Shown piece after piece: positions 19,140 through 44,245 of a stretch of 64,000 bases of DNA (its first letter is position 1; each line of letters begins with the position of its first letter). The DNA is taken from the NCBI RefSeq assembly GCF_000801105.2, contig NC_079515.1, positions 36,045,407 to 36,109,406 on the forward strand, read 5' to 3'. The notes under the pieces are model-generated. The model did not search any database. It worked only from the letters and a program-made list of their open reading frames with translations, and was not told the DNA's origin. The DNA comes from Raphanus sativus. Its lineage: Eukaryota; Streptophyta; Magnoliopsida; Brassicales; Brassicaceae. Position numbers and translations under genes: made by a program.

Positions 19140-22100
19140 TTAATCATTGCAGCAATTTCTGCTTTTGGCAGGAGGTGAACGGCTGACTCTTACGCTGATC
19201 TTGTTTTCCTTGCGAATGTGAATCTTTCTTCCTTCTTCATTGACTTGTACCACACTCAAAACTAATTAATTTCCTATATATATATTTTACACATAAATTT
19301 ATTTAGATGAAGCAAAAGACTTACCAGAAAACGTGCCCCTGAAGTCACTCTCAGCTTCCTCAGAAAATACTTTGTCGCTGGCCATAGGAGCAGTGAGAGC
19401 CAGCATGGGTCTATTAGCTTTCATTGAGGCCGCCATAAACTTGTTTGGGTTGACATTCAGGTCCCAGTTGCATCTTTCTATCTCCTTCTCACCATAGTCA
19501 AAAACCGGACCCTTCCCTTTGTTAAGATCTGTTGTGAGTAAAGGTGCAGCTTCCAATCTCAAAACAGTCCTCTGAAGAATAGGATCCCTTTCTGTTTCAG
19601 CAACAGACTTCTTCACCTTGTCAATCTTAATTGCAAGTGCTTCACCTGTGTCTGCTAGCAGGAACCTTCTCATCTCTTCAAGCACTTCCTCCGCAATTCT
19701 AGGTCTACCAGTTGATGTATTGATGCCCACCTGTTCCTCTTCAAGGACTCCAAAGAGAGGATCGTTTTGCTTAAGCACTGGTGCCGCTTTACTCTTCTCA
19801 GTGATAATTTTTTCCCTTCTAGCACTTGCAGCCTCTTGTCTCTTCTTCACCTCCCAAGGACAGTTTGCCTTTTCATGATTCATCCTCCTGCAGGTGTAGC
19901 AGCGTTTCTGGATTTTTTCATAGTCAAAGTGGATAGTATGAGTTTTACCACCCCCCATGTTCAAGACTCTAGCCATTTTCAGAGGATTGGCTACATTGAA
20001 ACGGACTTGAACTCTGATGAAGGTTGAGTAATAGGCTTTGATGGATCGAAAGCCACCACCTTCACTTCCCCTAGCATTTCCCCCAAAGAAAACAGAGCCG
20101 GCACCGTGTAGTAGTTAACCGGGATCTTGCTTATCTGAACCCACAGAGGAATATATTGGAGATAATCATCCGGCGGATTCTCAACCCACCTCTCCACCAC
20201 TATAACCCAGTCCTGGTAGGTGTGAACTCCTTTGTCGAGAACATCAAGCAAGTCATGTTCAGTTTTGAAGATGAACTGAAACTTTTCATCTGACAGCGCC
20301 ACTCCCCTGACTTTTCCTTCTTTTTGCCATTTGCGAGGCATGGTAAGGATGAGACCTGACATTTTTTGACGTTCAGGGTAGAGGGTTCTTCCTATGAGAC
20401 TGAGAGCATTTTCTTCTGCCGAACTAAACCCAGGTAGCTCCGGCATAGTGAACGGTACTTCTTCTTCTTCATCTTCCAGTGATAGAGCCATAAGAGCTCT
20501 GTCCATTGCAGCAGACATCTTGAATTTTTCGGTATAAAAACACAGAAATCTCAGATCTAACTTTAATGTTCAACCAACGTCTTCAAAGAGGAAGAACGAG
20601 TAGGTAGAAAAACACTTAATATCTTGTACTCTCACAGCAGAATATAGGAATAAAATATAAAAGTACTGAACTTTCTGAAAGATAACGTGTGAAATTTGCT
20701 TAACTCACTCCTCGATTTAATGTTTTACTGGACCCACAGTGAACAACTTAAACCCACAAGGGGATTCTAGAGAGCACGTTTCTCGCCTAAGGTTTCTGAG
20801 GCAATGAACTCTGATCTTACAAGAAGAGTTTCTAAAGAAGAAATTAGAGAAGCTTTTTTTTCCATCAACGCCGACAGTGCGCCTGGCCCGGATGGTATGA
20901 CAGGAGCCTTCTTTCAGAAGTATTGGGAAATTATTGGCGATCAAGTAACGAAAGAGATACAGGAGGTCTTTGAGACAGGGGTTTTACCGAAGGATTGGAA
21001 CTTCACATACTTGTGTCTGATCCCAAAGATTCCAAACACTGAGAACATGACTGATTTGAGGCCGATAAGCTTATGCTCGGTATTATACAAAGCCGTTTCG
21101 AAGATCTTGGTGAAGAGGCTCCAACCTTTCCTGAACTCCTTGGTGTCTGTGAACCAATCGGCATTTGTGAGTGAGAGGAACATTGCAGATAACATCGTCA
21201 TCGCTCACGAGGCTGTACACGCACTGAAAGTCCATCCATCTGTCTCGAAAGAGTTCATGGCGGTCAAAACGGACATGTCCAAGGCTTACGATCGTGTTGA
21301 ATGGAGCTATTTAAGGAATCTCATGACAGCATTGGGCTTTGACCCGAAGTGGGTAGAGATGGTGATGATGTGTGTAACCTCAGTCACATTTGCAGTACTG
21401 ATGAATGACCAACCTTTTGGTTTGATCACTCCACAAAGAGGCTTGAGACAAGGAGATCCATTATCTCCATTTCTATTTGTGCTATGCACTGAAGGACTCA
21501 CCCACTTGCTCAATGTGGTAGAAAGAAATGGACTCTTTAATGGTCTGCAATTTTCGGAAGAAGGCCCGGCAATACACCATCTTTTGTTTGCAGATGATAG
21601 CTTGTTTATGTGCAAAGCTACACAAGATCAGGCCTCGACTCTCCATAGAATCCTGCAGTTTTATGGAGCGGCGACGGGACAGAGTATAAACCTACAAAAA
21701 TCTTCCATATCTTTTGGGGTGAGGGTTGCGGAGGAAGTTTGCTCAGAGATAAAGAACATCTTGGGGATTATGAATGAGGGAGGAGCAAGCAAATACCTAG
21801 GTCTTCCGGAGTGTTTCTCGGGTTCAAAAATTGAGATGCTGTCATACATCAAAGATAAAACTCAAGGAAGGCTAGAAGGATGGTATTTGCGACATTTATC
21901 TCAAGGAGGAAAGGAGGTCTTGCTGAAGTCTTCAGCGGGAGGGATACCGGTTTTTGCAATGTCTGCATTCCGGCTTCCAAAAAAATTGATATCAAGCTTG
22001 ATAAGTGTTTATGCAGACTTCTGGTGGGGCTCGGATGCTCATAAGAAAAAGATTCATTGGGTCTCATGGGATAAGATGTGTCTACCTAAGAAGCTTGGGG

Positions 22101-24026
22101 GTGTTGGTTTTAGAGATTTGGAATGTTTTAATCAGGCTTTGTTAGCCAAACAAGCTTGGAAAATTCTTAACCAACCCCACTCCTTACTGTCAACTTTCTT
22201 ACAGAGTAGATATTTTAAGGATGGAGATTTTCTTTCGGCTTCAATGGGAGAGAGACCATCCTTTGCATGGAGGAGTCTTTTGTTTGGGAGAGAATTGCTC
22301 CAAAAAGGCCTGAGACACAGAGTGGGAGATGGCAAAAATACAAGAGTATGGCTGGACAAATGGATAGATGATCCAGTGGAAGGACTCAGAGCTCCATGGT
22401 TTAAAAACCTTCGTTTTGATGTAAACTTGATGGCAAGCTCACTCATTGATCCAGAGACAAAAAAGTGGAATGAAGCGGGCTTGGAGGAAGTCTTTGTGTC
22501 CTGTGATGTTCAGATGATCATGAGGAACCAACCTGTGGCTGCAAGACAGGATTTCTTCACATGGAAATTCAACAAAAGTGGGGAACTAACGGTGAAATCG
22601 GCCTACTGGCTTGCTTCCTCTTTAAAAACAAGAGAGCAGAACCCAGAAGCCTTTAGAGAACCCTCCACCAATGTGCTTAAGGAGAAAGTTTGGAAAGTTA
22701 AAACAGTTCCAAAGGTTAGAGTTTTCTTATGGAAAGCTTTGAGCAATGCACTTCCGGTGGCAGACTTGATCAGGGCAAGAGGAATGAAGATTGACAATCG
22801 TTGTCAAACCTGTGGAAATGAGACAGAATCGATAAATCATGCATTATTTGAATGCACCTTTGCTAGATTAGTATGGGCAGTCTCACCCATTCCTCAACGC
22901 AATGGAGGTTTTTCTGAAGACTCTGTTTTTACAAACATGAATTTTCTTCTCAATCTTAATGGAAATACTAACCTGCGGGAGGAAGATAAGAGGGTATGGC
23001 CCTGGATCCTGTGGAATCTTTGGAAGAGAAGGAACGAGATGGCATTTGAAGGGAGATGCCTATCTGCGGAGGAACTGGTAATCAAAGCGGTGAGAGACTC
23101 CGATGAATGGTATGTGGCTCAAGAAACTGACGCTGAGTGGGCAAAAGCAGAAAAAACCACGGGAACCTCTCTTCACCGTAAATGGAACCCGCCAGAATCA
23201 GACTGGGTGATGTGTAACGTGGGAATGGATTTTTCCAGTGAAAAGGAATGTGTGGGAGGAGCTTGGGTTTTGAGAAATGACAGAGGTGTGGTCCTTTGCC
23301 ATAGTAGGAGAGCTTTCTCTGGAATAAAGAATAGAGAGGATGCAAAGCTGGTGGTTGTTTTATGGGCCTTTGAAAGTATGAGAAGCCAGAGACAATCTAA
23401 TATCATCTTTGCAGGAGAGTTTGCAGATTTATTTGGAGCACTTCAACGTCCTCGAGCGTGGCCCTCCTTCCTATACCAAACTTCTGTTATGGAAAAGGAG
23501 CTGGAAGGGATCACAAACTGGAAACTAAAGGTGGTGACGAGAGAAGCCAATAAAGGGTCGTCACTCATTGCTCAAAGTGTCAACAAGTATGGACTGATAA
23601 ATTCTTATGTCGCTAGAGGGCATCCATCTTGGTTGTTTGAATTCTTTGTGAATGAAAGTCGAGGTCTCTAATTGTGGTCTTAGTTGAAGATCGTTGGGGA
23701 AGAGCTGAGATAACATTGAAACGGTGAAATGAGTTTAGGACAGAAGTGTGAAGGCCTCTGTTTTATAGTGCTCTGTTTTGTAATTCTCTCTTGCTCTGTT
23801 TTTTGGGTGGGCTGATCTGGGTAGTTGCAGGAAGCTCCCCTTTTGTAAGGAGGTTTTGGCTTTATTGCCTTTTATATATAATGAATCTATCTTGACGGAA
23901 AAAAAAAAAAGAAGCAAAAGACTTACAAAATTTCTGGTTTCTGAGAAATGGAAGGATTGCCGATTCAGAAGATGGGATGCATAAAAGTAAAAGTGAAGCT
24001 ATTAATAGGATGAACTTGAGACTCAT
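19140..24026 (-). CDS. candidate small secreted peptide precursor A (SCOOP-like), intron interrupted by a LINE
   Basis: Exon 1 (24026-23927) encodes a signal peptide, MSLKFILLIASLLLLCIPSS, then ESAILPFLRNQKF, and ends in phase 1 at a GTAAGT donor. Exon 2 ends with stop 19140-19142. The acceptor at 19244 gives 67 residues and a native intron of 82 nt; the acceptor at 19262 gives 73 residues and 63 nt. Both keep one frame ending ...SVRVSRSPPAKSRNCCND. The C-terminal SRSPPAK stretch is short, basic and rich in Ser/Pro, as in Brassicaceae SCOOP phytocytokine precursors. Exon 1 length, intron phase and the xNxK[FL] end match gene B at 25405. The intron now also holds a 4.6-kb LINE. No database check was possible; family membership is inference. 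Confidence 0.45.
19309..19324. repeat. left target-site duplication of the LINE
   Basis: GAAGCAAAAGACTTAC, identical to 23911-23926. On the minus strand it reads GTAAGTCTTTTGCTTC, which is the first 16 nt of the host gene's intron, so the insertion duplicated the splice donor. Confidence 0.9.
19325..20518 (-). pseudogene. LINE ORF1 (gag-like, DUF4283 and CCHC zinc knuckle), truncated and frameshifted
   Basis: Starts at 20518 (MSAAMDRALMALSLEDEEEE). A DUF4283-like domain follows (LTMPRKWQKEGKVRGVAL ... VVERWVENPPDDYLQYIPLWVQI), then the knuckle RCYTCRRMNHEKANCP. The frame changes once near 20020-20035: FDPSK should continue YYSTFIRVQVRFNVANPL, which is found in another frame, so about one base is missing. 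The reading frame runs out into the flanking target duplication at 19325. ORF1 proteins bind element RNA. The segment is inverted relative to ORF2. Confidence 0.85.
20804..23671 (+). CDS. LINE ORF2 fragment: reverse transcriptase, zf-RVT, RNase H-like
   Basis: An uninterrupted 955-codon frame. It holds a non-LTR reverse transcriptase (APGPDGMTGAFFQKYW, LRPISLCSVLYKAVSKIL, MSKAYDRVEW, GLRQGDPLSPFLF, catalytic HLLFADDSLF), then a zf-RVT domain (FLWKALSNALPVADLI with CQTCGNETESINHALFEC), and a C-terminal RNase H-like region (VGMDFSSEKECVGGAWVLRN). The N-terminal endonuclease expected in L1-type ORF2 is absent, and the related frame begins just upstream at FSPKVSEAMN. Position 20804 is the first Met after the inversion junction, not the natural start. 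The open frame suggests a fairly recent insertion. Confidence 0.93.
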   Translation: MNSDLTRRVSKEEIREAFFSINADSAPGPDGMTGAFFQKYWEIIGDQVTKEIQEVFETGVLPKDWNFTYLCLIPKIPNTENMTDLRPISLCSVLYKAVSKILVKRLQPFLNSLVSVNQSAFVSERNIADNIVIAHEAVHALKVHPSVSKEFMAVKTDMSKAYDRVEWSYLRNLMTALGFDPKWVEMVMMCVTSVTFAVLMNDQPFGLITPQRGLRQGDPLSPFLFVLCTEGLTHLLNVVERNGLFNGLQFSEEGPAIHHLLFADDSLFMCKATQDQASTLHRILQFYGAATGQSINLQKSSISFGVRVAEEVCSEIKNILGIMNEGGASKYLGLPECFSGSKIEMLSYIKDKTQGRLEGWYLRHLSQGGKEVLLKSSAGGIPVFAMSAFRLPKKLISSLISVYADFWWGSDAHKKKIHWVSWDKMCLPKKLGGVGFRDLECFNQALLAKQAWKILNQPHSLLSTFLQSRYFKDGDFLSASMGERPSFAWRSLLFGRELLQKGLRHRVGDGKNTRVWLDKWIDDPVEGLRAPWFKNLRFDVNLMASSLIDPETKKWNEAGLEEVFVSCDVQMIMRNQPVAARQDFFTWKFNKSGELTVKSAYWLASSLKTREQNPEAFREPSTNVLKEKVWKVKTVPKVRVFLWKALSNALPVADLIRARGMKIDNRCQTCGNETESINHALFECTFARLVWAVSPIPQRNGGFSEDSVFTNMNFLLNLNGNTNLREEDKRVWPWILWNLWKRRNEMAFEGRCLSAEELVIKAVRDSDEWYVAQETDAEWAKAEKTTGTSLHRKWNPPESDWVMCNVGMDFSSEKECVGGAWVLRNDRGVVLCHSRRAFSGIKNREDAKLVVVLWAFESMRSQRQSNIIFAGEFADLFGALQRPRAWPSFLYQTSVMEKELEGITNWKLKVVTREANKGSSLIAQSVNKYGLINSYVARGHPSWLFEFFVNESRGL
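23911..23926. repeat. right target-site duplication of the LINE
   Basis: GAAGCAAAAGACTTAC directly follows the poly(A) and equals 19309-19324. It is followed by the last bases of exon 1 of peptide gene A (minus strand). Confidence 0.9.
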
Positions 24027-24269
24027 TTTTCTGCCCTATGTATCTTTTGTCTAGCTAAAGCATAAATAGTAAATAAATAGTTGTTAGTGTAAGACTGTTA
24101 GGTGGCGATCATATCAGCGTCGTTCTCACCATAGTTGGTGAAGATTTGTATAAGTCAATGCATTTTTAATGAGCGGATGTTGGCCTTTTAATCTTTAGTT
24201 TCTTCTCCTTATACTTGCATTAGAAGAAAAAAAATACCATGAATAAGTACCTTTATGTGTATCGAAATT

Positions 24270-24420
24270 ATCTAGTAGTAGTGGTTTAATGGTTTTCCAG
24301 ATCAAAGATCGATTCTCCTCCAATGTAAAATTGTTAACTCCACATGTGGCTACCTGTCGCCGGCCCACATGAGCAGGATTAGTCGGGATTCGCCTAGACA
24401 TCTCTCATGTTTAATAAATA
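24270..24420 (+). repeat. possible tRNA-derived SINE
   Basis: An A-box-like AGTGGTTTAATGGT and, 20 bp later, a B-box-like GATCGATTCTCC are followed by GCCCACATGAGCAGGATTAGTCGGGATTCG, the style of Brassicaceae SINE 3' ends. No clear poly(A) or target duplication could be fixed. Confidence 0.35.
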
Positions 24421-25404
24421 TATAAAATATCTCCAACGTTAATCATCAATTTCGGTAAAACAATGAGACGCACAAGATATATGGGTAATGGAATCCATGC
24501 TTCAGTACTCACTCGACAGTCCAAAATTTTGGATCAAATAGGCAATAGATACTCACAATGACTCAATATCCTAGGGTTTGACATAATTTTTCAACTGAAC
24601 TCAAAGAATTTGGAAGATTAAGAAAAGGCTCCAGAGCATTCGGTGTGTCCTATACGTAACTCGTGTGGCAAACTGTATAACTGATTCTTTTATCTTTTAG
24701 CTAAGAGTGCGAGATTTTTTTTTGTAGGGTTATTCTTCCGACTTGCTTTTAGTGTTGTTTTTGATTTCTATTTTTAAAACCACCTCAATTTAGAGTAATA
24801 AAATAGTTATTATGTTAAAAAAAAGAAGGCAGTACACCTAGCTGCTATCCAGAATCGAGATGAGGGGTTACGAAAGTTGCCCGGACAAAAGTGTAAGAAA
24901 GGTATCTTGATCGTGACTCGTGAGGTTGTAGAGGGTGACGAATAGCATGAAGAGAAACCTTAGGCGATCAAGACAATCGATCTTGCTGCAGAGAATCTGG
25001 TGAATCTCTCTCTAACCAAGTGAGAATATGTTTGGAGATGGAGGCATATATAATTGAATGTTTCTCTCCTTCCACAACTACTATACATACAATGAAATTC
25101 CATTTCTTTTATTCATAAGAGTATATAACATACATAATGAAATAACAGTGTAACAAACAATTAGAGACCACTTATTAGAAGATGTATACAATAGATGGAT
25201 GGAAACGAAAGACAATTATATGTCATAGCTTAGAAATAATTAGGGGGATAGATCTACAAAGATTTCATCTTGGCGCCTAAAAGACACCCAAATGCATATA
25301 GATGGAGATTACTGTATTCATAGGGATTCTGTTCAAGCGAAAGTTAAATGTATCTATTTTTGTAAACGGTCCATTTAACCACCACGAACCATAGATTGCC
25401 GTTC
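24421..25404. other. gene-free spacer
   Basis: AT-rich sequence between the two peptide genes. No gene, RNA or repeat is recognised. Confidence 0.5.
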
Positions 25405-25646
25405 TCATGGTTTGCCTGCCGGTCTTGACTTACTAGGGCATGCTTCTATATTTACTGTTTGATGAATTCATGACGCTAATCAGTAAACCAAAAATGTAAA
25501 ATAGAGAGTACAAGTGGAATGATAAATTTTCAGGATTCCTTACAAAGTTTGCGGTTGTGGCATGACTGAGTTGAAGCTGCATAAGATGAAATCAAGAAAG
25601 AGAGAATCAGAAGAACCAAAGCAATCAACAACACGTTTCTCTTCAT
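25405..25646 (-). CDS. candidate small secreted peptide precursor B (SCOOP-like)
   Basis: Exon 1 (25646-25544, 103 nt) encodes a clear signal peptide, MKRNVLLIALVLLILSFLIS, then SYAASTQSCHNRKL, ending in phase 1 at a GTAAGG donor. The 89-nt intron ends ATCAAACAG. Exon 2 (25454-25405) adds LNIEACPSKSRPAGKP and stop, giving 50 residues. The C-terminal SKSRPAGK is basic and has the S-x-S spacing typical of SCOOP peptides. It resembles SRSPPAK of gene A, and exon 1 size, intron phase and junction residues also agree. A TATAAATA box lies 43 nt upstream of the ATG. The gene is also compatible with another small secreted peptide family. The exon model is mine and lacks transcript support. Confidence 0.5.
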
Positions 25647-25688
25647 TTTCTATATTTATGTGTTGTAGGTGAAAAAGTTATGTGTGTG

Positions 25689-25696
25689 TATTTATA
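25689..25696 (-). promoter_or_regulatory. TATA box of peptide gene B
   Basis: Reads TATAAATA on the minus strand, 43 nt upstream of the proposed start codon, which allows a short 5' UTR. It supports the gene model at 25405-25646. Confidence 0.6.
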
Positions 25697-26584
25697 CCAG
25701 TTACAGATTTTTTATTCTTTCAAATGTGAAGTCTACAATGAAGCAGCGTATAGAAGACCTTTTCTGATCTTTTATTATCCGACTTGAAGGAGTCTTCGAC
25801 GTAGACAAACATGATAGTTCTCTTTACACAACGCGTGGACATATTGCATGTTTTTTCTTTTTTGAATATCAACAAAGTTTGAAACCGAAATCTCTAATTT
25901 CTTAAATTTGAAACCATAACATTTAATGTTAGTTTTTTTTTAATATTAGTTTCATTCCTGCTATTTTTAACAACTTATAAATTACGAATTTACGATTTAC
26001 TTTACTGAAGTCCTTTAATCCCTTTTCCAAGAGGAATGGTAGTGATGCTTATAAGTTATAACTATGACATAAAGTTGCCCCTTTACAAAGAAAAAAAACT
26101 TATGATACAAAAAGTACGCATAAAAATGAAGCATTAAAGAATAAACAGAACTCCAAAAACCAATGTGATATCTTTTCTCCCCAATTCTACCTGCATGTAA
26201 GGTTAAAAAAGGTCAACTTGCATGTCCACGTCCTGTCTCATCAGCCGAGAATGTTTCAAAGTCACGTAATTTGAATATACTTAGCGGCTAATAAAAGACA
26301 CTAATAAACCTAATAATTATCAGCACAAGAAATTGGATCATGACTAAATTGATATTGTTAGCACGTTGGAAACAAACAAAAACTCTAAATCTGAAGTGTC
26401 TGATTGGGTATTGGTTATAGGGTCTTTCTTTGAAGAACGATCCTTAAATCACGCATATTTCTTCATGAAACAGCGACATTTAAATATGTCTAGATTAAAA
26501 ACTGTATAACAAATTTTAGATCATGAGTCATGAGACATGACTAGTGAAGACTCATGTGTTTGTGTCTGTAACTACAATGCTACA
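25697..26584. other. gene-free AT-rich spacer
   Basis: Upstream region of peptide gene B. No further gene or repeat is recognised. Confidence 0.5.
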
Positions 26585-31514: not shown

Positions 31515-33727
31515 TCACTTCCTAGACTGAGAGCCTTGAGTGCAAACACCTTGGGAGGCTTCAGGCTGAGAAGATTCACCACTCACAAAAGTCTGAAAAC
31601 ACATCACATCCCCAATCAATTCAACAAGCTTCATTTCAATCCAAAACACATCATCATAAACAACAAAACCGAGAGAGAAACCGAGAGAGAAATGAAACAA
31701 ACCTTGTTCTTATGGAACCTGATGTTATGATTAGCAGCACCACATTGCCCACAGTGCATGATCCGCTTCAAGGTCTTGTCTTTTTTCTTCGATGGTGATT
31801 CATTGACTCCTCTCTTCCTCTTTTTATCTGCTTTAGTCACCTTCTTACGGCCTGGTTGATCTGGGATCACAGGTTCAATTATAGATGGTTCTTCTCCTAC
31901 GGGCCAGAACTTTGCTCCACGCAATGGTACAATCCCTTCAGCATACGTACGCCTCCACGTAGGTGTCTTAAACCAGTGAACCACATAGTCTTGAGCCTCT
32001 AGACCTTTCTTCAACATAACTCCATAGGCGTGCTCACAAGGGATCCCTGTAATCTCCCATCTCCTGCAACTACAAGTTCTACTCTCCAAGTTAACCCTAT
32101 GTGCACAGCCATAGCTAGTAGTACATTCATATGTCTGGTTGGTGGAAGGTCTAATCGTCGATTCTGAAGCTTTCTGGTGCAACTTCTCGAGCATCTCAAC
32201 GACATACGGTGTGCAAATCCCTTCGTAACTGCTGCAGATGACATCCCTTTTCGCTATACGAACCATTGCCAAGCGAGCTATTGTCTCCAACATAGGTACA
32301 AAGGGTTTGTCTCGGGCTTTACCTATGGAGTTGTTGAATGACTCGGTTGAATTGTTCTCCACGTCTTCACAATAAGGTCCAAGCTTGTGAAACGCCCTGC
32401 ACCACTTCTCTGGCTTTGCCTTCATCACGTCGTCATAAACAGCTGCATCGTACATCTGAATGTCTAAGAGGTTTGCTCTGTAATCAGCCTCATTGTAGCT
32501 CCAAGCAAGGTTCCAAAGCTTTAGCTTCATATCTGGTTTCTTTCCATGGTTCTTCTTCAAGTTACCATAGATGTGTCTAACACACATCCTATGCTCAATT
32601 CCCGGCAGTGCTCTCTTCACAGCAGCAATCAATCCCTTCTGACGATCTGAAACCATAACATAACCATCTCCTTCTTCTAGTCCTAGATCAACCTTGATCT
32701 TTTTCACAAACCACAACCAGTTGTCTGTATTCTCTACTCCTACCACAGCCCATGCGATAGGGTAAATAGAGTTATCGGCATCGCGACCCAAAGCCACTAG
32801 CAGCTGCCCTTTCATCCTAGACTTCAAGAAACATCCATCTACTCCAATTAGTGGCCTGCATGTTTCTTTCCAGCTTCTCCTCAGAGCATCAAAACAGACA
32901 TAAAATCTGTTGAAAACGTCAATGCCAGCATCATTCTTCACACAGTCAAGCTCCACAGAAGAATTTTGATTCGAGCTTCTTATCTCAGCGCAGTAATCCC
33001 TCAACCGCCCAAACTGCTCATCATACTCTCTTGCAATCCATCTGACCGCCTTGTTCCTAGCATGTTGGCATTGCGGCCTACTAACATTGATCTTCCATTT
33101 CTCCATAACAAGCTCCTCCATCTTCATGGGCATGAAATATTCTGGTTCTTCTCTGATCTTGTCAACAAACAAGCGAGCTATTTGTGGAACTTTAAGCATC
33201 TCACAAGTACCTGTAGGAACACAAGTATGATCCTTCTTCATGATTTTCACCTGCCATTTGTTGGGATACTTTGCTGCAACTGAGGCGTAGACGCGCCACG
33301 AGCAACCTTTGCCTTCACATACAAATCCGATCTTTGTGCTGTCATATCGATTCTGCTTGATGTTCCTTCCCGTTTTCAGAGCATAATCGAGCACTGCTTC
33401 CTTAAACGCAATTCCATTGATGAACACCTGCCCAACAAACAACTCCCCACTGCCTCTTCTAAACTGATCGCGCCTGTAGATAGTTCTCTGAACCTCTTTT
33501 CTCTGATTCTCTTCCACGTCTGCCTCTTCATCTGATTCTGTCTCTGGATACAGGTTATGCTTCACTGGAGGCTCATCAACAAAGTTCATGGCATCCTTCT
33601 CAATGTTGTAGTCGTTGCGCTCTCTTCTATCTTCACCATCAGAGTCAATATCAGGAGAATCAGGTGTCCCCGGATCGAAAGCAGGTACATCATTCCACTC
33701 TACATTCACATCAGACCATGGCTCCAT
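31515..33727 (-). CDS. MULE transposase (MURA/MuDR type)
   Basis: Exons 33727-31703 and 31592-31515 join in frame to 700 residues. Order: acidic N-terminus, MuDR DNA-binding-like region (FVGQVFINGIAFKEAVLDYA ... GFVCEGKGCSWRVYAS), MULE catalytic domain (LIGVDGCFLK, VMVSDRQKGL, CVRHIYGNLKK, and a downstream acidic residue near SYNEADY), SWIM zinc finger (CSCRRWEITGIPCEHA), then a basic tail and a knuckle-like HCGQCGAANHNIRFH. It excises and integrates the element. I start at MEPWSD because upstream codons come only from a CT-rich repeat and an acceptor-like TTTTGCAG precedes the ATG, suggesting an intron in the leader. No disabling change is seen. Confidence 0.93.
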
Positions 33728-33759
33728 TGTTGATACCTGCAAAACAAAGACATACAAAA

Positions 33760-33960
33760 TGGTAAGAGACAACGAGAGAGAGACCAAGAGAGAGACAGAG
33801 CGAGAGACAGAGAGAGAGACAACAAGAGAGAGACCAAGAGAGAGACAGAGCGAGAGACAGAGAGAGAGACAACGAGAGAGAGACAACAAGAGAGAGACCA
33901 AGAGAGAGACAACGAGAGAGAGACAGAGAGAGAGACAGAGAGAGAGACAAGAGAGAGAGA
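33760..33960. repeat. GAGAGA-rich low-complexity tract in the MULE transposase leader
   Basis: Irregular copies of GAGAGAGACAACAAGAGAGAGACCAAGAGAGAGACAGAGC fill about 200 bp between the TIR side and the transposase start (CT-rich on the gene strand). It produces long Ser/Leu or Arg/Glu frames that are not genes. Confidence 0.9.
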
Positions 33961-36312: not shown

Positions 36313-36620
36313 CATTTCCTCGTAAATCACTCGCCTAAATTCCTCGTACAAACCACGTGAACTCGCGTCGTTACTTACACGTAAGATCCTTGAAATCATA
36401 TCCTCGTAATTCGATGTAATATCCTTGAAAGGATTTCTCGTAAAATCGATGTAGAATCGTTGAAAGGTTTTCCTCGTAAAAACTCGAAAAGCCTTTCCTC
36501 GTAAAGACCTCGAAGACTTCCTCGTAAAAACCTCGAAACTATTTCTTCGTAAATTTTCTCGGAAACATTTCGTTCGTAAATAACTCGTAGACTTCCATTT
36601 TTCGAATTAATAAAAATTTT
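36313..36620. repeat. CACTA subterminal repeats, left side
   Basis: Many short copies of CCTCGTAAA, some with one substitution, at irregular spacing. Such subterminal motifs are binding sites of the TNPA-type protein in En/Spm. Confidence 0.75.
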
Positions 36621-36722
36621 TGATAAATAATAATATATAATTTAACAAATAAAATATTTAAATATTGGATTTATAAATAAATTTTAAATAAAATTCACAA
36701 GCAAACAAAAATTTATATATAA

Positions 36723-38479
36723 TTAAGTTTGGATTTTATAATACATAAACCGAAAAAAACTAAAAAAACTAAGGCTCGTCATCGCCTCGTAGAATTTCCT
36801 CGCTCTCCTCGTAACATCCTCCTCGTTATGTGTGCCCGATGACTCGCCTGGAATGGGATTTTTGTTGTTCATGTTCCTCAACAAAGCTTCCCATTCCGAT
36901 TTGTGGACGCTATAACGTCGATGAAGGCTCGAGTCCACTCACACGGCTTTTGGTCGCGCCCAGCTCGGAACGCAAACTGAGTGACTTCTTCGTCTGCTCT
37001 GGGCATAAGATGATGTCGCTCTCGGGACATCATTGACGGAAACCGATCCCCAACGTACGTCCCTTTTTCTTAGGGACAACCTTAAAACAAAAAAAATTAT
37101 ATATTGTTAGTTAAATTTAAAAGGGATTTAATCAATTATAATTAAAAAGATATAATGTTAAAAAATTTACCTCCTCGTAAATCTTATCCACTTCAGTTGT
37201 GGATAAGGTAACTGGTAATTCCGTCGCCCCGTGACTGCTGGGTCAGCTGAGTCTGGCGCTCCTCAACCCGAGCAATTACGTTGTTGTAGATTTGCTCGAC
37301 TTGCCATCCTAAAAACTGGCCCGCCTTGTTTTTGTGGGTCCGCTCGTAAAGTTCCGGAAGAGTCGGAAGACGTCCCAACTCTTTGGCCTAAAAACATTTA
37401 AGAAAATTGTTAGAAATAATATTTAATTATATTAAATAATAATTAAATATTTAATTACGTACCATTTTCAAACGGACACCGGCATGTGGTTTTTGGCCCG
37501 TAAGAGTGTAGCATCGGGCCGTTACCGTGCTCGTCTACCGTGTTACGGGCGGCAGCACAAATGTTTGCGATCCTAATGGAGTTAGGATCCTTCCAGTAAA
37601 CGGATGAGGCCGTCCCAAACATCCGTGGTAAGCTCAGCGGGTTTGCCACGGGTGTACCCCTTGACGATCCAGGCACCCTTCCAGTTGCAAAACCGTGTCC
37701 GACAAGCGAACTTGCGCCTTTTCGTAAAACGCCTTCCTCACTCTCTCACTGACCCCGATGGACCAATGATACTTTTGCTGCAAAAAAAAATTAATAATTA
37801 GTTAATAAAAAAAAATTAATAATTAGTTAATAAAAAAAAAATTATTAATTAGAATTACTTACAGCGTAAATATTTGAACCACGTCTTTCGGATGTAGATC
37901 GGCGTCAAATTTCCAGTTTGGATGCGCCATGGAGAAGTAACCTTTAATCGTCTCGGTTACATCTGTCGCAAGGGAATTGTCAACCCCAAACCTGGAAAAA
38001 AAATGAAAATTTAAATTATTTAATGAAGTTATAAATTAATTAATTAATTTAAAAAATACACTTACCATAAAGTCCCGTCGGGTCTGTCGGGGTCTATGAT
38101 TGGTAAACCAGCTCTGCCTGGCATACCAAGAATATCCTCGACAGTGTACTGCGAGAACGGAACAGTAGGTGGCACCATGAGATCGGGATGAACAGCGGCG
38201 GGGATCTCAGGAGGAGCCATCGGAGGAGGCACCGGAGGGAGCCATCGGAGGAACCATCGTTGAGCCATCGGCTGAGCCATCGGCTGAGCCATCGGCTGAG
38301 GCTGAGCCATCGGAGGAGGAATCGGAGGGAAAGAAATGCTGAGTCTCGGGAACAGACTCCTGATCTGAAGAACCTGAACCGCCGGCACCTGAAGAAGAAC
38401 CTGGCGGGTCTAACTGACTACCAGGCTCACCGAATATCTCCCTGTAGTGAGCAGTAAGCATGCGCTGGCGAACCTGCAA
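36723..38479 (-). pseudogene. CACTA second gene (Transposase_24/TNPA-side), multi-exon and frameshifted
   Basis: Fragments in order on the minus strand: MQVRQRMLTAHYREIFGEPG with a Ser/Gly-rich linker (38479 on), then in another frame [20 protein letters not shown] (to 38062), MAHPNWKFDADLHPKDVV (near 37900), YWKDPNSIRIANICAAARN (37676-37455), MGRLPTLPELYERTHKNK (37378-37193) and KSEWEALLRNMNNKNPIPG (36938-36780). This is the Transposase_24 layout of plant CACTA second genes. A frame change falls in the ATGGCTCAGCC-type repeat near 38250-38330. Exon borders are only approximate. Confidence 0.65.
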
Positions 38480-39044
38480 AAATATATTTTTTTGAGATTA
38501 TGATCATCAATAATTAAAAAGCTATCATCAATAATTTAAAAATCTATCTAACAAACATAAAATCCGTAAACCTATCTAAATTCTCTAAACTAACCACCTA
38601 AATTAACCACCTATCTAAATTGTCTAAACTAATAAAGGGGCGAGGAAATTACCATTTTCGGAGGAGAGAGGAATGGGAAAGGGTTAGAGACGAAATGGGA
38701 GAGGAAGTGGAGAGGAAGTTGGGAGGAATGGACAGTGTGAGGTTTGTGAGGTTGTATATATAAGTTACGGAGGTCTCGCAATTTCCTCGTAAGTTTACGA
38801 GGAATTAAAGAGGCCCGTGTTCCTCTTTCTCGTAAAAACCTCGTAAGCTTACGAGGAAATTGCGAGGCCCGTCCCAAATTAAACGATAAATTAGCGAGGC
38901 CCGTCTTTTTGTTACTCGTAAAACCCTCGTAACATTACGAGGAATTGCGAGGCCCGTCCCAAATAAACGATGAAATTCGAGGCCCGTCTTTCTGTTCCTC
39001 GTAAATGCTTCGTAAGTTACGAGTTATTAACGAGGTTATTTTCT

Positions 39045-40450
39045 AAACCTCTAAACTCTAAACCCCAAACCTTAAACCCCATCTTTTCTTATATTCTACT
39101 TCATATATTCATAACATATCAAACCTCAAAATTTATAACCACAATTCTTTAACTTCTAATATCAATCTCTTCTTCTAATTTAAACTTATACAAATCAAAT
39201 TATTTATTTAAATATAATCATTTGAAGATTTGAAAATATATCTTTTGAAGATTTAAAAATATAATCTTTTGAAGATTTGAAAAATATAATCATTGAAGAT
39301 TGAAAATATAATCTTTTGAAGATTTAAAAATATAATCTTTTGAAGATTTGAAAATTATTAATGGGGTTTGGAGTTTTGGGATTTAGACAAAAGAGATAAG
39401 AAAGATGGGGTTTGGGGTTTAGGGTTTAGGGGTTTAGACAACATATCTCGTTAAAACCTCGTAAACCTACGAGGAAATAACGAGGAAAAAAAAAAAAAAA
39501 AAAAAGCCTCGTTAATTCCACGTAAGCTTACGAGGTCGTTACGACGATTTGTGCTTACGTGGAATTACCGAGGCCCGTGTATTTCTTTTTTTCTACTTTC
39601 CTCGTCGTATTTCGTCGTAAATTACGAGGAATTAACGAGGTTTTCTTTCTAAACCTCTAAAATCAAAAACCCCAAACCACAAACACCATCTTTCCTATCT
39701 TCTACTCTTCATATTCCAATTCCAAACCTCAATCCTTTATTTTTCATTCAAAACCTCAAACCTCAATATTCTTAACATTTCAAACCTCAAAATTTATAAT
39801 CACAATTCTTTAAATTCTAATATCAATCTCTTCTTCCTAATTTAAACTTATACAAAATCAAATTATTTATTTAAATATAATCATTTGAAGATTTGAAAAT
39901 AATATCAATTTTTGAAGATTTGAAAATATAATCTTTTGAAGATTTAAAAATATAATCTTTTGAAGATTTGAAAATATAATCATTTGAAGATTTGAAAATA
40001 TAATCTTTTGAAGATTTAAAAATATAATCTTTGAAGATTTGAAAATTATTAATGGGGTTTTGGAGTTTGGGATTTAGACAAAAGAGATAAGAAAGATGGG
40101 GGTTGGGGTTTAGGGTTTAGGGTTTTAGACAACATATCTCGTTAAAACCTCGTAAACCTACGAGGAAATAACGAGGAAATAAAAAAAAAAAAAGCCTCGT
40201 TAATTCCACGTAAGCTTACGAGGTCGTTACGACGTTTGTGCTTACGTGGAATTAACGAGGCCCGTGTATTTCTTTTTTTCTACTTTCCTCGTTATTTCGT
40301 CGTAAATTACGAGGAATTACGAGGTTTCTTTCTAAACCTCTAAAATCAAAAACCCCAAACCACAAACACCATCTTTCCTATCTCTACTCTTCATATTCCA
40401 ATCCAAACCTCAATCCTTTATTTTTCATTCAAAACCTCAAACTCAATATT
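39045..40450. repeat. tandem duplication of about 0.6-0.7 kb between the CACTA genes
   Basis: Units 39045-39650 and 39651-40333 share long identical stretches (for example CAAAAGAGATAAGAAAGATG at 39388 and 40079, 691 bp apart), and a partial third unit starts at 40334. Each unit has a TTTAGGG-like stretch and an imperfect palindrome around CCACGTAAGCTTACGAGG. Confidence 0.85.
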
Positions 40451-40516
40451 TTTTTTTATAATCGAATCACATGCATTAAGTCTGAAAATCAATCATCATT
40501 TAAACACACAAATACA

Positions 40517-43500
40517 TCAATCAGATACATTTTCGTCATCACTAGAAACATCATCATTTTCATTAAACTCGTCTTCAACAGCTTCATCTGTGCCATCGTC
40601 GGTAAGATCTTCATACTCATGATTATGCGGATCAATGAGAAGAATGTCATCAATTTGTTGTTCAGGTTCCTCGACTTCATTTATCTGTTTCTTTGCAATG
40701 GTGGTTCTTCTCCACTTATGATTCGTCCTCGAGGTGTAACTTTGATCACGGATAACCAATTTATTCCCGATTCTCTCATCCGAGGGTATGGAAGGTAGCT
40801 AACTTGATCTGCTTGTGAAGCTAAGATGAAAGGCTCGAATTTGTTGTACCTGAAAATAAAGAAAACATAGAAATAAGCTTATTCTACTCATGTATGCCAA
40901 ATAAAGAATTGTTGTACCTTCTTCCACCATTGACATCAACTACACCGAATTTGTTAACCGAACACCTCTGTTGACGACGGGGTCGAACCACTCACATTTG
41001 AAGAGGACGCATTTCAGCTTCAATATCCCTGGAAATTCCACTTCGATAATCTCTGTCAAGATACCGTAGAAATCGGTTTCCCCTTTCACACATATTCCAT
41101 AGTTACTGGTTGCCCGCTGTCTACCATACTCATATGTGTGAAAAGTATAGCCTCGTGTGAAATACATCTGTGAAGTGGTGACCTTTACATGTGGAGATTG
41201 AATTACTCATGTAACCACTTAGGATAATCTGCATCGTCGTCAAAATCAACCTGCAAAAACAAAGTGAACGTTAAAATACAAATCATTTATGAATAAAGAG
41301 TTTGAGTTAATACCTGACTCTTCAACCATTTTATAAAGTGTTGATCTTTCCTTTTGTACGTCAGTTGTGGATATACCAGGGAATGTTTCTTCGACTTGTG
41401 AAAACAATAGGCTTGTAAAATCACTTTTTATATTAATTAATATTTGGCAATTATATATATGTGTTAATTTATATATACGTGTCCATTTATGTTACCTTTC
41501 AAATAACGAATCAATGGATCCTCACAATTAAGTAGAATATAGGTGTGTGCACTATGAGCGTCTTCTTCACTCGACCACCAAACCTCTTTTGATTTTCCAC
41601 CCAGTCGCCCAATCTGGCTAAAGATGTCTGGAAAACACCAGCAACTGCGTATGTTGGCGCGACACCACCATCATCATATCTCCTTGGAGCTCTTTTCCGA
41701 GTACGTACTTTTGACGCAAAGTAGTACGATGTGAAGTGAGAAGTTTCTTCCGTCAAACTTCCAGCAATTATAGAACCTTCAACCTTTGCAAGGTTCTTTG
41801 CTTTTCCCTTCAAATATTTCATGGCTCGCTCATACTGATACATCCATCCGTAATGTACAGGTCCACGAAGCAATGCCTCATATGGAAGGTGGACAGCTAG
41901 ATGCTCCATTACGTCAAAAAACCCAGGAGGAAATATCTTCTCCAAGTTGCACAATAAGATGGGAATGTTCTCTTGAAGCTGTTCCACGACTTCTACTTTA
42001 AGGGTGCGGGTGCTCAGATCCCTGAAAAATGCTCCAATGCCTTGTATATTCCAAAAACAATTATACACATATTAGTCATATATATTTCAAACTAAATCAT
42101 TATATATAAAATAACTGCAATAATAAATATAGTACCTGCAAGTGCTTCATGTACGTTTGTAGGAAGTAGCTCCGCAAAAGCAAAGGGAAGTAGTCGTTGC
42201 ATAAAGACATGACAGTCATGACTCTTCATCCCAGAGAACTTTTGACCCTTTTCAACGCATCTAGACAGATTTGAAACATACCCATCGGGGAATTTCACTT
42301 CTGATGCTACCCAGTTGAACAACACCGACTTTTTTTCTGAAGACAATCTGAATATCGGAACAGGAACTTGCCCATTGCTGTTTATATGTAACTCGCTTCT
42401 TGAGCAAATATCCGGCAAGTCTAACCTTGATTTTATGTTGTCTTTTGTCTTCCCCGGGACATTCAATATTGTATTCATGATGTTCTCAAAGAAATTCTTC
42501 TCTATATGCATCACATCGAGGTTGTGGCGCAGAAGAAGATCCTTCCAATATGGCAACTCCCAAAATATACTCTTCTTGTGCCAGTTGTGATGAACACCGT
42601 AAGAATCAGGCATATTAGGGGGAACATGCCAATTACCACCACGAGGAACTGTTTCCAAAACTCCATAGTAATCGAGTTGCTTTTCAGTTTCTTCTCCAGT
42701 TAAATATGGAGGAGGAGTGTCTCTCACAACCCTTTTGTGCCTAAACAATGTCTTGTTTCTTCGGTACGGATGGCCAATGGGAAGAAATCTACGATGACAA
42801 TCGAACCAACTTGTCTTCCTCCCATTCTTCAGTTGAAACGCATCTGTCGCTCCATTACAATATGGACAAGCTAATCTCCCATGTGTAGTCCATCCCGACA
42901 ACATCCCATAGGCAGGAAAGTCACTTATGGTCCACAAAAGCATCGCTCGCATCGTGAAATTCGTCTTCGTTGAGCAGTCATACGTCCTCTCCCCTGTTGA
43001 CCACAAATCCTTCAACTCTTTTATCAGTGGTTGCAGGAAAACATCCAGCGACCTTTTAGGATGTTTCGGACCAGGTATTAATATGGTCAAGAATAGCAAC
43101 TCCCGTTGCATGCACATCTCCGGTGGCAGGTTGTATGGCGTAAGAAAGACTGGCCACAATGAATATTGTCTCCCTGACATTCCGAATGGACTAAATCCAT
43201 CTGTGCATAATCCGAGATACACATTCCGGATATTGCTAGCGAATTCCGGATATACTTTGTTAAAATGTTTCCAGGCTCTTGCATCTGATGGATGTGTCAT
43301 CTCACCATCCGTCTGAGTATGCTCGGCATGCCATCTCATCTTTCCAGCAGTCTGCTCTGATTGGTACAATCTTTTCAATCTGTCTGTAATTGGTAGGTAC
43401 CACATCCTTTGGTACGGTACCCTATTACGTCCCCGTCCTTGCGGCTTGAATCGTGGCTTCTTGCAGAATCGACATTCTTCTAACTTCTCATCATTTCCCC

Positions 43501-44245
43501 AGTAGATCATGCAGTTGTCGATGCAAACATCTATCATCTCCGAAGGCAACCCAAGACTATACACCAGTTTCTGAATCTCATAATAAGAATCAGCAGACAC
43601 ATTGTCTTCCGGCAAATACTCTTTGAACAAGTCTGCCCATTCATTCATGCAACTTTCCGGTAGATTGTGATCAGTTTTAATATTCATCATTCTAGCAGCC
43701 AACGACAATTTAGAGAGACCTTCTCTACAACCACTGTAAAGTGGTTGATTCGCCGCATTTAACATTTCATAAAACTTTTTTGCATCTATGTTAGGTTCTT
43801 CATCTTCATCATGAGCTACAAATGCATCAGTTACCATATCATGAACCCTATCAAAATCTACCATCTGCTCCTCCTGATGGTAACTAGGTTCATTATGCAA
43901 ATGAAGAGCAACCGGTTCTTCCTGAAAATTGCTATTACTACTACTAGCTTCATTCTGATCATAATTATTATAACCTTCTCCATGTTGAAACCAGATATAG
44001 TAATTTGGCGTGAAACCTCTATTTATTAAATGCTTCCAAACATTTTCACGATTTGCCAATTTCGAATTGTTGCATTTCCGACATGGACAGAACATCTTAC
44101 CGCTTTCTAGGGCGAGCGGTGTGGAATCTGCTTGATGCATAAATGTCTCCAGTCCCGCAATGTATTCTTTCGTCACTCTCCCGTTAGCATCTCTATGCAT
44201 ATACATCCACCTCCGCAACTCGTAGACATTCCCAGAGCCTGACAT
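40517..44245 (-). pseudogene. CACTA TNP2/TNPD-type transposase, frameshifted
   Basis: Exon 1 (44245-42136) has the Transposase-associated domain (MFCPCRKCNN ... WKHLINRGF) and the Transposase_21 region (GLCTDGFSPFGMSGRQYSLWPV, RLACPYCNGATDAFQLKNGRKTSWFDCHRRFLP, DVMHIEKNFFENIMNTIL). Exon 2 (from 42040) carries DUF4218 (FPPGFFDVMEHLAVHLPYEA). Later pieces carry DUF4216 (GICVKGETDFYGILTEIIEV, 41167-40940) and an acidic tail to 40517. Two extra bases near 41632-41635 break the frame: the expected PDIFSQIGRLGGKSKEVWWS and DAHSAHTYILLNCEDPLIRY are found in the next frame. It would catalyse element movement; this copy is probably dead unless the two bases are a read error. Confidence 0.85.

What the first reader, a model, noticed from the sequence alone, without database searches (positions are those of the whole stretch)
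19140..25646. Tandem pair of undescribed-looking small secreted peptide genes with a shared C-terminal SxSxPA-like motif
Two minus-strand two-exon models share the same plan. A strong signal peptide is followed by 10-15 residues, then a phase-1 intron placed after RNQKF (A) or HNRKL (B), with exon 1 of 100 and 103 nt. A short second exon ends near the stop with SRSPPAK (A) or SKSRPAGK (B). The sequence shows both frames and splice signals, and gene B has a TATA box. Brassicaceae-specific SCOOP phytocytokine precursors are known to be small, secreted, tandemly arranged and marked by an S-x-S motif. That these two belong to that or a sister family is inference.
Basis: partly seen in the sequence, partly recalled or inferred. 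Interest (0 to 1): 0.78.

Follow-up and report, generated by a model that had tools for sequence, protein, structure and literature searches.

The report
Radish SCOOP/EWR1-type secreted immune-peptide gene pair
Two neighbouring radish genes encode tiny secreted proteins that look like precursors of the SCOOP family of plant immune signalling peptides, a known kind, and one of them carries a jumping gene inserted right at its splice site.

Summary
The window lies in radish (Raphanus sativus). Both minus-strand, two-exon, phase-1 models are as described: A is 67 aa, B is 50 aa. They are real genes. A is 99% identical to annotated LOC108862778 and has relatives across Brassiceae, Camelina and Arabidopsis lyrata. 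B has an A. thaliana relative. A and B relatives are near neighbours by locus number in Camelina and Sinapis.

A and B are homologous to each other and to a tandem array on contig C370. That array lies beside YTH and Cpn60 genes, which fits the Arabidopsis EWR1 locus. EWR1 is SCOOP27, and SCOOP24-28 are reported to be active. S-x-S sits at the SCOOP position. The 13-mer of A's LINE-free copy shares 7 of 13 residues with SCOOP12 (2 of 20,000 shuffles do as well). Best reading: SCOOP-type phytocytokine precursors of the EWR1 branch. MIK2 activity is untested, the glycine tail is weak, and both hold cysteines.

A LINE-free copy (86-nt intron) lies in a nearby inverted duplication.

New members of a known kind.

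The parts
25544..25646 (-). gene B exon 1 (signal peptide, ends HNRKL)
   Evidence: translation and splice sites; A. thaliana relative P0009
25455..25543 (-). gene B intron, 89 nt, phase 1
   Evidence: GTAAGG...CAG; same length in the inverted copy
25405..25454 (-). gene B exon 2 with stop
25408..25446 (-). gene B SCOOP-like 13-mer EACPSKSRPAGKP (S at 5 and 7)
   Evidence: coordinates derived from the model
25689..25696 (-). TATA box of gene B
23927..24026 (-). gene A exon 1 (signal peptide, ends RNQKF)
   Evidence: P0001 = LOC108862778
19244..23926 (-). gene A intron, 4,683 nt, of which 4,602 nt (LINE plus one target-site copy) are the insertion
   Evidence: the LINE-free copy has an 86-nt intron
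19140..19243 (-). gene A exon 2 with stop
19158..19196 (-). gene A SCOOP-like 13-mer SVRVSRSPPAKSR (S at 5 and 7, R at 13)
   Evidence: coordinates derived from the model
19325..23910 (.). LINE insertion, 4,586 bp, 5'-inverted
   Evidence: junctions; Pfam RVT_1 and DUF4283; relatives with the two halves on opposite strands relative to this copy
23911..23926 (-). target-site duplication copy 1 (GTAAGTCTTTTGCTTC), starts at the splice donor
19309..19324 (-). target-site duplication copy 2, carries a second GTAAGT donor
20804..23671 (+). LINE reverse transcriptase ORF, 955 aa
   Evidence: RVT_1, 4.1e-32
19991..20518 (-). LINE ORF1 fragment (DUF4283)
   Evidence: 1.8e-22
24860..25130 (-). non-coding element conserved downstream of gene B and of C370-array relatives

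Best explanation
A and B are precursors (PROSCOOP-like) of short secreted signalling peptides in the EWR1/SCOOP24-28 branch of the SCOOP phytocytokines. Exon 1 encodes the signal peptide and a short linker ending in RNQKF or HNRKL. Exon 2 encodes the peptide with S-x-S near the C-terminus. Shown here: real conserved genes, homology of A and B to each other and to the array on contig C370, exon plan, motif position. Inferred: secretion, trimming by apoplastic subtilases, release of a roughly 13-residue peptide around SVRVSRSPPAK(G/S)R (A) and EACPSKSRPAGKP (B), docking of the two serines in MIK2 with BAK1, and a defence or root-growth response. In this copy of A the short intron was enlarged by a twin-primed LINE whose target duplication begins at the 5' splice site. 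The normal protein is made only if the 4.7-kb intron is still spliced from the original donor.
For: Homologs named by source are all Brassicaceae: 55 of 58 proteins (the other 3 carry no name). Relatives of B and A lie near each other by locus number, on contigs of one length, in Camelina (LOC104765127/LOC104765128) and Sinapis (N665_0290s0065/0063, two numbers apart). S-x-[ST] lies after residue 26 in 56 of 66 proteins; of the 10 without it, 8 are 37 aa or shorter (two of the 66 are radish models that repeat database entries). A bridging radish gene on C9 has a B-like exon 1 and an A-like exon 2 ending FPSRSPPARR (P0015). Relatives lie in tandem on C370 near YTH (7.6e-15) and a Cpn60 match under its cut-off; the EWR1 neighbourhood holds At3g13460 'ECT2 like' (PMC3914955, passages). 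EWR1 has exons of 97 and 116 bp, an 87-bp intron and 70 aa; its B. rapa, B. oleracea and S. irio homologs end in two adjacent cysteines and A. lyrata's does not. The A family fits (P0028, P0029 with CC; P0058 without). The 13-mer of A's LINE-free copy shares 7 of 13 with SCOOP12 (2 of 20,000 shuffles), window A 6 of 13 (24 of 20,000); window B shares 5 of 13 with a B. napus PROSCOOP motif (242 of 20,000). EWR1 is called SCOOP27 with MIK2-BAK1 as receptor (PMC9578349, passage) and SCOOP24-28 are said to activate immunity (PMC11371470, passage).
Against: Window B against SCOOP12 is no better than shuffles (4 of 13; 4,020 of 20,000), and window A against SCOOP10 and the B. napus motif is not either (3 of 13; 8,938 and 11,947 of 20,000). 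A lacks the glycine-rich tail (only G12 in most relatives, S in the window). B lacks the final R whose deletion inactivates SCOOP12. Both proteins contain cysteine, which the first 14 PROSCOOPs lack. The CC ending is not exclusive to A: B-type relatives such as P0009 and P0011 end in CC too. TBP, a published EWR1 neighbour, was not found on C370. Intron lengths in other relatives differ from EWR1's (129 nt in C6 A; 123, 156, 266 on C370). dN/dS between radish paralogs is 0.67 for A and for B on few sites, not clearly below 1; B's first 24 codons alone give 1.5. Window B is on a long branch, and the tree program warns that the A rows and C9 rows are long branches that meet. No PROSCOOP profile was available to search. 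No transcript evidence.
Confidence: 0.74

Rival explanations
1. A and B belong to a Brassicaceae-specific sister family of secreted peptides that shares ancestry and plan with SCOOPs but acts through another receptor, or directly as antimicrobial peptides, as was once proposed for EWR1.
For: Weak glycine tail and conserved SxSxPA instead; cysteines near the C-terminus; the B versus SCOOP12 match is not above shuffles; the EWR1 authors discussed antimicrobial features.
Against: EWR1 is reported as SCOOP27 with the MIK2-BAK1 complex as receptor (PMC9578349, passage); the B2 paralog on C6 ends SPSKSRSGGGGS, a typical SCOOP tail, 7 of 13 with a B. napus PROSCOOP motif (74 of 20,000 shuffles).
Confidence: 0.18
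2. The window copies are decaying duplicates: A is knocked out by the LINE, B is drifting, and the working gene is the LINE-free copy in the inverted duplication.
For: LINE at the donor with a duplicated donor site; P0001 in the database equals the LINE-free copy's product, with glycine at 61, while the window has serine; 14 of 15 database A-type proteins have glycine there and P0007 cysteine; B has a long branch.
Against: Both frames and both splice sites are intact. In each gene one amino acid differs between the copies, with no synonymous difference.
Confidence: 0.3
3. The frames are chance ORFs.
For: Short ORFs are common.
Against: Annotated and conserved across genera; neutral simulation.
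Confidence: 0.02

Closest known systems
EWR1 / SCOOP27 (At3g13437) and SCOOP24-28
   Same: Size, two exons of about 100 nt, an 86-89-nt intron in LINE-free A, B and B2 (EWR1 87), signal peptide, Brassicaceae only, CC in Brassica but not in A. lyrata A-type homologs, tandem genes; C370 relatives near YTH and Cpn60 genes.
   Different: The A/B locus itself is not at the EWR1 position: its C6 homeolog has an acyltransferase neighbour (LPAT5/AT3G18850 by recall), and the window's neighbours fit AT3G188xx by recall. The EWR1 sequence itself was not available to align.
SCOOP12 and the first 14 PROSCOOPs
   Same: Signal exon plus motif exon, S at 5 and 7, A at 10; R at 13 in A.
   Different: Glycine-rich tail weak or absent, cysteines present, precursors shorter (50-67 aa against 72-117).
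PIP, CLE, CEP and IDA peptides
   Same: Short secreted Ser/Pro/Gly-type precursors.
   Different: No His/Asn-type C-terminus; compared by eye and recall only.

Membership tests
SCOOP (PROSCOOP) | N-terminal signal peptide | tested here: inconclusive
   Strong hydrophobic core in both; no SignalP.
SCOOP (PROSCOOP) | two coding exons, signal peptide in the first and motif in the second | tested here: met
SCOOP (PROSCOOP) | S-x-S at positions 5 and 7 of the C-terminal 13-mer | tested here: met
   rule from PMC7846792 (passage).
SCOOP (PROSCOOP) | glycine-rich tail after S-x-S | tested here: not met
   Window A has no glycine there, window B one; the B2 paralog on C6 has GGGG. Reported as shared by the majority of SCOOPs, not all.
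SCOOP (PROSCOOP) | no cysteine in the precursor (first 14 members) | tested here: not met
   A and B have cysteines; rule from PMC6382344 (passage). EWR1 homologs in Brassica also have them.
SCOOP (PROSCOOP) | restricted to Brassicales, tandem arrays | tested here: met
   55 of 58 homologs carry a source name and all 55 are Brassicaceae; tandem pair here and array on C370.
SCOOP (PROSCOOP) | match to PROSCOOP profiles | not testable with these tools
SCOOP (PROSCOOP) | MIK2/BAK1-dependent activity | not testable with these tools
   Bench assay.
EWR1 (SCOOP24-28) branch | synteny or homology to the EWR1 locus genes | tested here: inconclusive
   Homology to the C370 array near YTH and Cpn60, but no TBP there; the EWR1 sequence itself not available; A/B's own position differs.

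The most novel reading that the evidence does not exclude
Gene A is the radish counterpart of the vascular-wilt resistance gene EWR1/SCOOP27. In one of two recently duplicated (or allelic) copies a twin-primed LINE has landed so that its target duplication reproduces the 5' splice site. The intron then has two competing donors and the dose or form of an immune peptide may vary between radish lines.
Probability: 0.35. Interest if true: 0.55.

Novelty: new member of a known kind. Interest (0 to 1): 0.34.

Why it matters
It places two unnamed radish genes in a peptide family tied to Fusarium and Verticillium resistance, defines the exact peptides to test on MIK2, and gives a clean LINE-versus-empty-site pair at a splice donor for asking how a transposon in a tiny gene's intron changes peptide output. 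The family itself is already known.

Tried and rejected
Chance ORFs: rejected by annotation, cross-genus conservation and simulation. Known Pfam domain: A none, B only Fig1 at E 0.13 under its cut-off; of four relatives, P0058, P0009 and P0018 none and P0031 only Tra_M at 0.096 under its cut-off. Rfam in 23900-26500: one match, RT-17, 18.9 bits against a cut-off of 40.4. TBP as a marker of the EWR1 locus: 24 matches in the genome, none on C370 or C754; YTH and Cpn60 were found on C370 instead. Conserved structure of the downstream element: 29 predicted pairs, 9 with changes on both sides in at least one sequence, but consensus energy only -8.35 with a positive covariation term; not convincing. 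dN/dS from radish paralogs is too weak to use alone. Papers: LOC108862778, LOC104765128, N665_0290s0063, AtNW77, ISN45_At03g013410 gave none; 'AT3G188' with 'PROSCOOP' none; 'AT3G1885' with 'transmembrane protein' one unrelated paper, listing only. SCOOP, MIK2 and Raphanus sativus together: 3 papers, listing only, except passages of PMC9578349.

Open: whether the A. thaliana relative of B (P0009) is already one of the 50 PROSCOOPs; the Nature Plants 2023 paper is not held.

Full report
What is there. The window is part of a 433-Mb genome. Product A is 99% identical to radish LOC108862778, from a contig of the same length (39,956,999) as C5, so the genome is Raphanus sativus. A: MSLKF...RNQKF | FNEEG...SRSPPAKSRNCCND, 67 aa. 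B: MKRNV...HNRKL | LNIEACPSKSRPAGKP, 50 aa. B has a TATA box 50 nt before its ATG. Hydropathy fits signal peptides in both.

They are genes. The search with A gave 8 proteins, all Brassiceae; 5 of the 8 have the radish junction and 3 (P0006, P0007, P0008) carry an insert there that would fit an upstream acceptor. The search with B gave one, from A. thaliana. A profile of seven family members gave 52. Of the 58 proteins in all, 55 carry a source name and all 55 are Brassicaceae. Relatives of B and A lie near each other in Camelina (LOC104765127, LOC104765128) and Sinapis (N665_0290s0065, 0063), judged by locus number and contig length. Simulated neutral drift of the two CDSs at K = 0.45, an assumed divergence, gave no open frame with at least 64% (B) or 60% (A) identity in 20,000 trials; at K = 0.3 the figures are 0.62% and 0.47%. 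The observed values are 64.7% (B versus A. thaliana), 63.2% (A versus Camelina) and 58.2% (A versus A. lyrata, below the threshold used). dN/dS between radish paralogs (0.67 for both) rests on 10.5 and 11.5 synonymous differences and does not by itself reject neutrality.

A and B are one family. Aligned, both keep S-x-S at the same place (S54 and S56 invariant in 12 of 12 rows). A radish gene on C9 joins a B-like exon 1 to an A-like exon 2, with IHIPKIK and SRSPPAR (it is annotated, P0015). Contig C370 holds five signal-exon matches. Three of the five open into two-exon models ending PPSRSSPARGHGGKKNHRL, PPSRTPPAHQCC and, with SxT, TPGSVTKPAGQGSESNRGGSPNAG; for the other two I saw no second exon with the motif in the stretch read. 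Across 66 proteins (58 database, 8 radish models, two of which repeat database entries) 56 have S-x-[ST] beyond residue 26. Of the 10 without, 8 are 37 aa or shorter and look like exon-1-only models. A few of the 56 matches (P0036, P0045) are outside the aligned motif. A tree of 37 chosen rows separates an A clade (12 rows, 100/99) from the rest, with the C370-type genes in a group of 11 (86/87). It rests on 68 columns, 13 of 34 inner branches are open, and the program warns that the A rows and C9 rows are long branches that meet.

Link to EWR1. C370 beyond the array carries a YTH gene (PF04146, 7.6e-15) and a Cpn60 fragment (1.5e-5, under the curated cut-off). The published EWR1 neighbourhood runs At3g13430, 13432, 13435, 13437 (EWR1), 13440, 13445 (TBP), 13450, 13460 'ECT2 like' (PMC3914955, passages); ECT2 is a YTH protein and At3g13470 a Cpn60 gene by recall. 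TBP was not found on C370. EWR1 is 70 aa, exons 97 and 116 bp, intron 87 bp, and its B. rapa, B. oleracea and S. irio homologs end in two adjacent cysteines while A. lyrata's does not. The A family shows the same pattern (P0028, P0029 versus P0058), although B-type proteins such as P0009 also end in CC. LINE-free radish A has exons 100 and 104 nt and an intron of 86. EWR1 is also called SCOOP27, with MIK2 and BAK1 named as its receptor complex (PMC9578349, passage), and SCOOP24-28 are said to activate immune responses (PMC11371470, passage). The EWR1 sequence itself was not available, so A = EWR1 is a lead, not a result. A/B's own position differs: the C6 homeolog of A lies near an acyltransferase, which I recall as LPAT5/AT3G18850, and the window's neighbours (sugar transporter; Rab-like, PPR-like and WD40-like translations by eye) fit AT3G188xx by recall.

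Motif. SCOOP12 is PVRSSQSSQAGGR. Five radish mature regions were held against three known motifs, 15 comparisons, each with 20,000 shuffles. Against SCOOP12: LINE-free A 7 of 13 (2 shuffles as good), window A 6 (24), C6 A 5 (292), window B 4 (4,020), B2 5 (4,919). Against SCOOP10: B2 6 (424), window B 4 (1,079), LINE-free A 4 (1,639), window A 3 (8,938), C6 A 3 (14,101). Against a B. napus PROSCOOP motif: B2 7 (74), window B 5 (242), LINE-free A 4 (2,413), window A 3 (11,947), C6 A 3 (14,386). So A resembles SCOOP12 and the B type the glycine-tailed motifs; window B's own signal is modest and it joins the family by homology more than by motif.

The intron of A. The intron is 4,683 nt because 4,586 bp (19325-23910) are a LINE. 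Reverse transcriptase is on + (RVT_1, 4.1e-32) and the ORF1 piece (DUF4283) on -. A 12-nt A-run on + ends at the junction and a 16-bp target duplication GTAAGTCTTTTGCTTC flanks it. The first copy starts exactly at the splice donor, so the insertion duplicated the intronic side of the 5' splice site. The flanks joined without insert and one duplication align in one piece to C5:36020204-36021024 (98.9%, 821 columns, 5 gap positions). A search with 1,001 bp across the inversion point gave 42 matches (40 of 74 candidates scored). Apart from the window itself none covers query 399-486, and at 6 places on C5, C7 and C9 the two halves lie about 2.5 kb apart on opposite strands, 6 of 6, as expected if the window's copy is 5'-inverted (twin priming) and they are not.

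The inverted duplication. Of 16 BLAST pieces over 300 bp, 12 (88-99% identity, inverse order) link window 10698-35235 with C5:36013004-36030967, and 36313-42228 with 36032525-36038458; the other 4 (76-93%) look like internal repeats. The fetched stretch began at 36013000, so the far end is not known. A and B there are intact; each differs from the window by one amino acid (A glycine-61, B cysteine-22) with no synonymous difference. Whether this is a real duplication or two haplotypes laid side by side in the assembly cannot be told here. P0001 is identical to the LINE-free copy's product.

How it probably works. By analogy with SCOOP12 and SCOOP10 (PMC7846792, PMC8448819, PMC9784617, PMC11331138, PMC6382344: passages only, and the start of each abstract in listings), the precursor enters the secretory path, is trimmed outside the cell by subtilases, and the two serines bind two pockets on MIK2, recruiting BAK1. 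All these steps are inferred for A and B.

Verdict. Real, conserved, and most likely SCOOP precursors of the EWR1 branch: new members of a known kind, with a neat transposon insertion as the unexpected part.

Noticed in passing
window 24860-25130 (-); L024 4792-5041; L031 1054-1384; L029 4521-4717; L057 1831-1934; L055 4853-5083: A non-coding element at and after an AATAAA behind gene B is conserved (74-82%) behind C370-array relatives and persists on C6 beside A, where I saw no B frame; one copy (C6:16405k) had no peptide match nearby. 8 places (window and its inverted copy included), plus one by C370:13482. Function unknown.
   Followed up: partly
C5:36013004-36038458 versus window 10698-42228: Inverted segmental duplication (or second haplotype), main pieces 88-99% identical.
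   Followed up: partly
window 42092-44245: CACTA-type transposase (Transposase_21, 4.5e-78).
   Followed up: no
window 31631-33901: 756-aa ORF whose translation looks like a Mutator-type transposase by eye (not searched).
   Followed up: no
G000 C370 and C754: Two contigs carry parallel sets of peptide-gene matches with nearly equal scores: haplotigs or duplicates.
   Followed up: no
L030 4265-4557, L032, L033: Three copies of the B2 paralog (LOC108809632, LOC130503853 by P0018 and P0025), ending SPSKSRSGGGGS, the most glycine-tailed of the radish models.
   Followed up: partly
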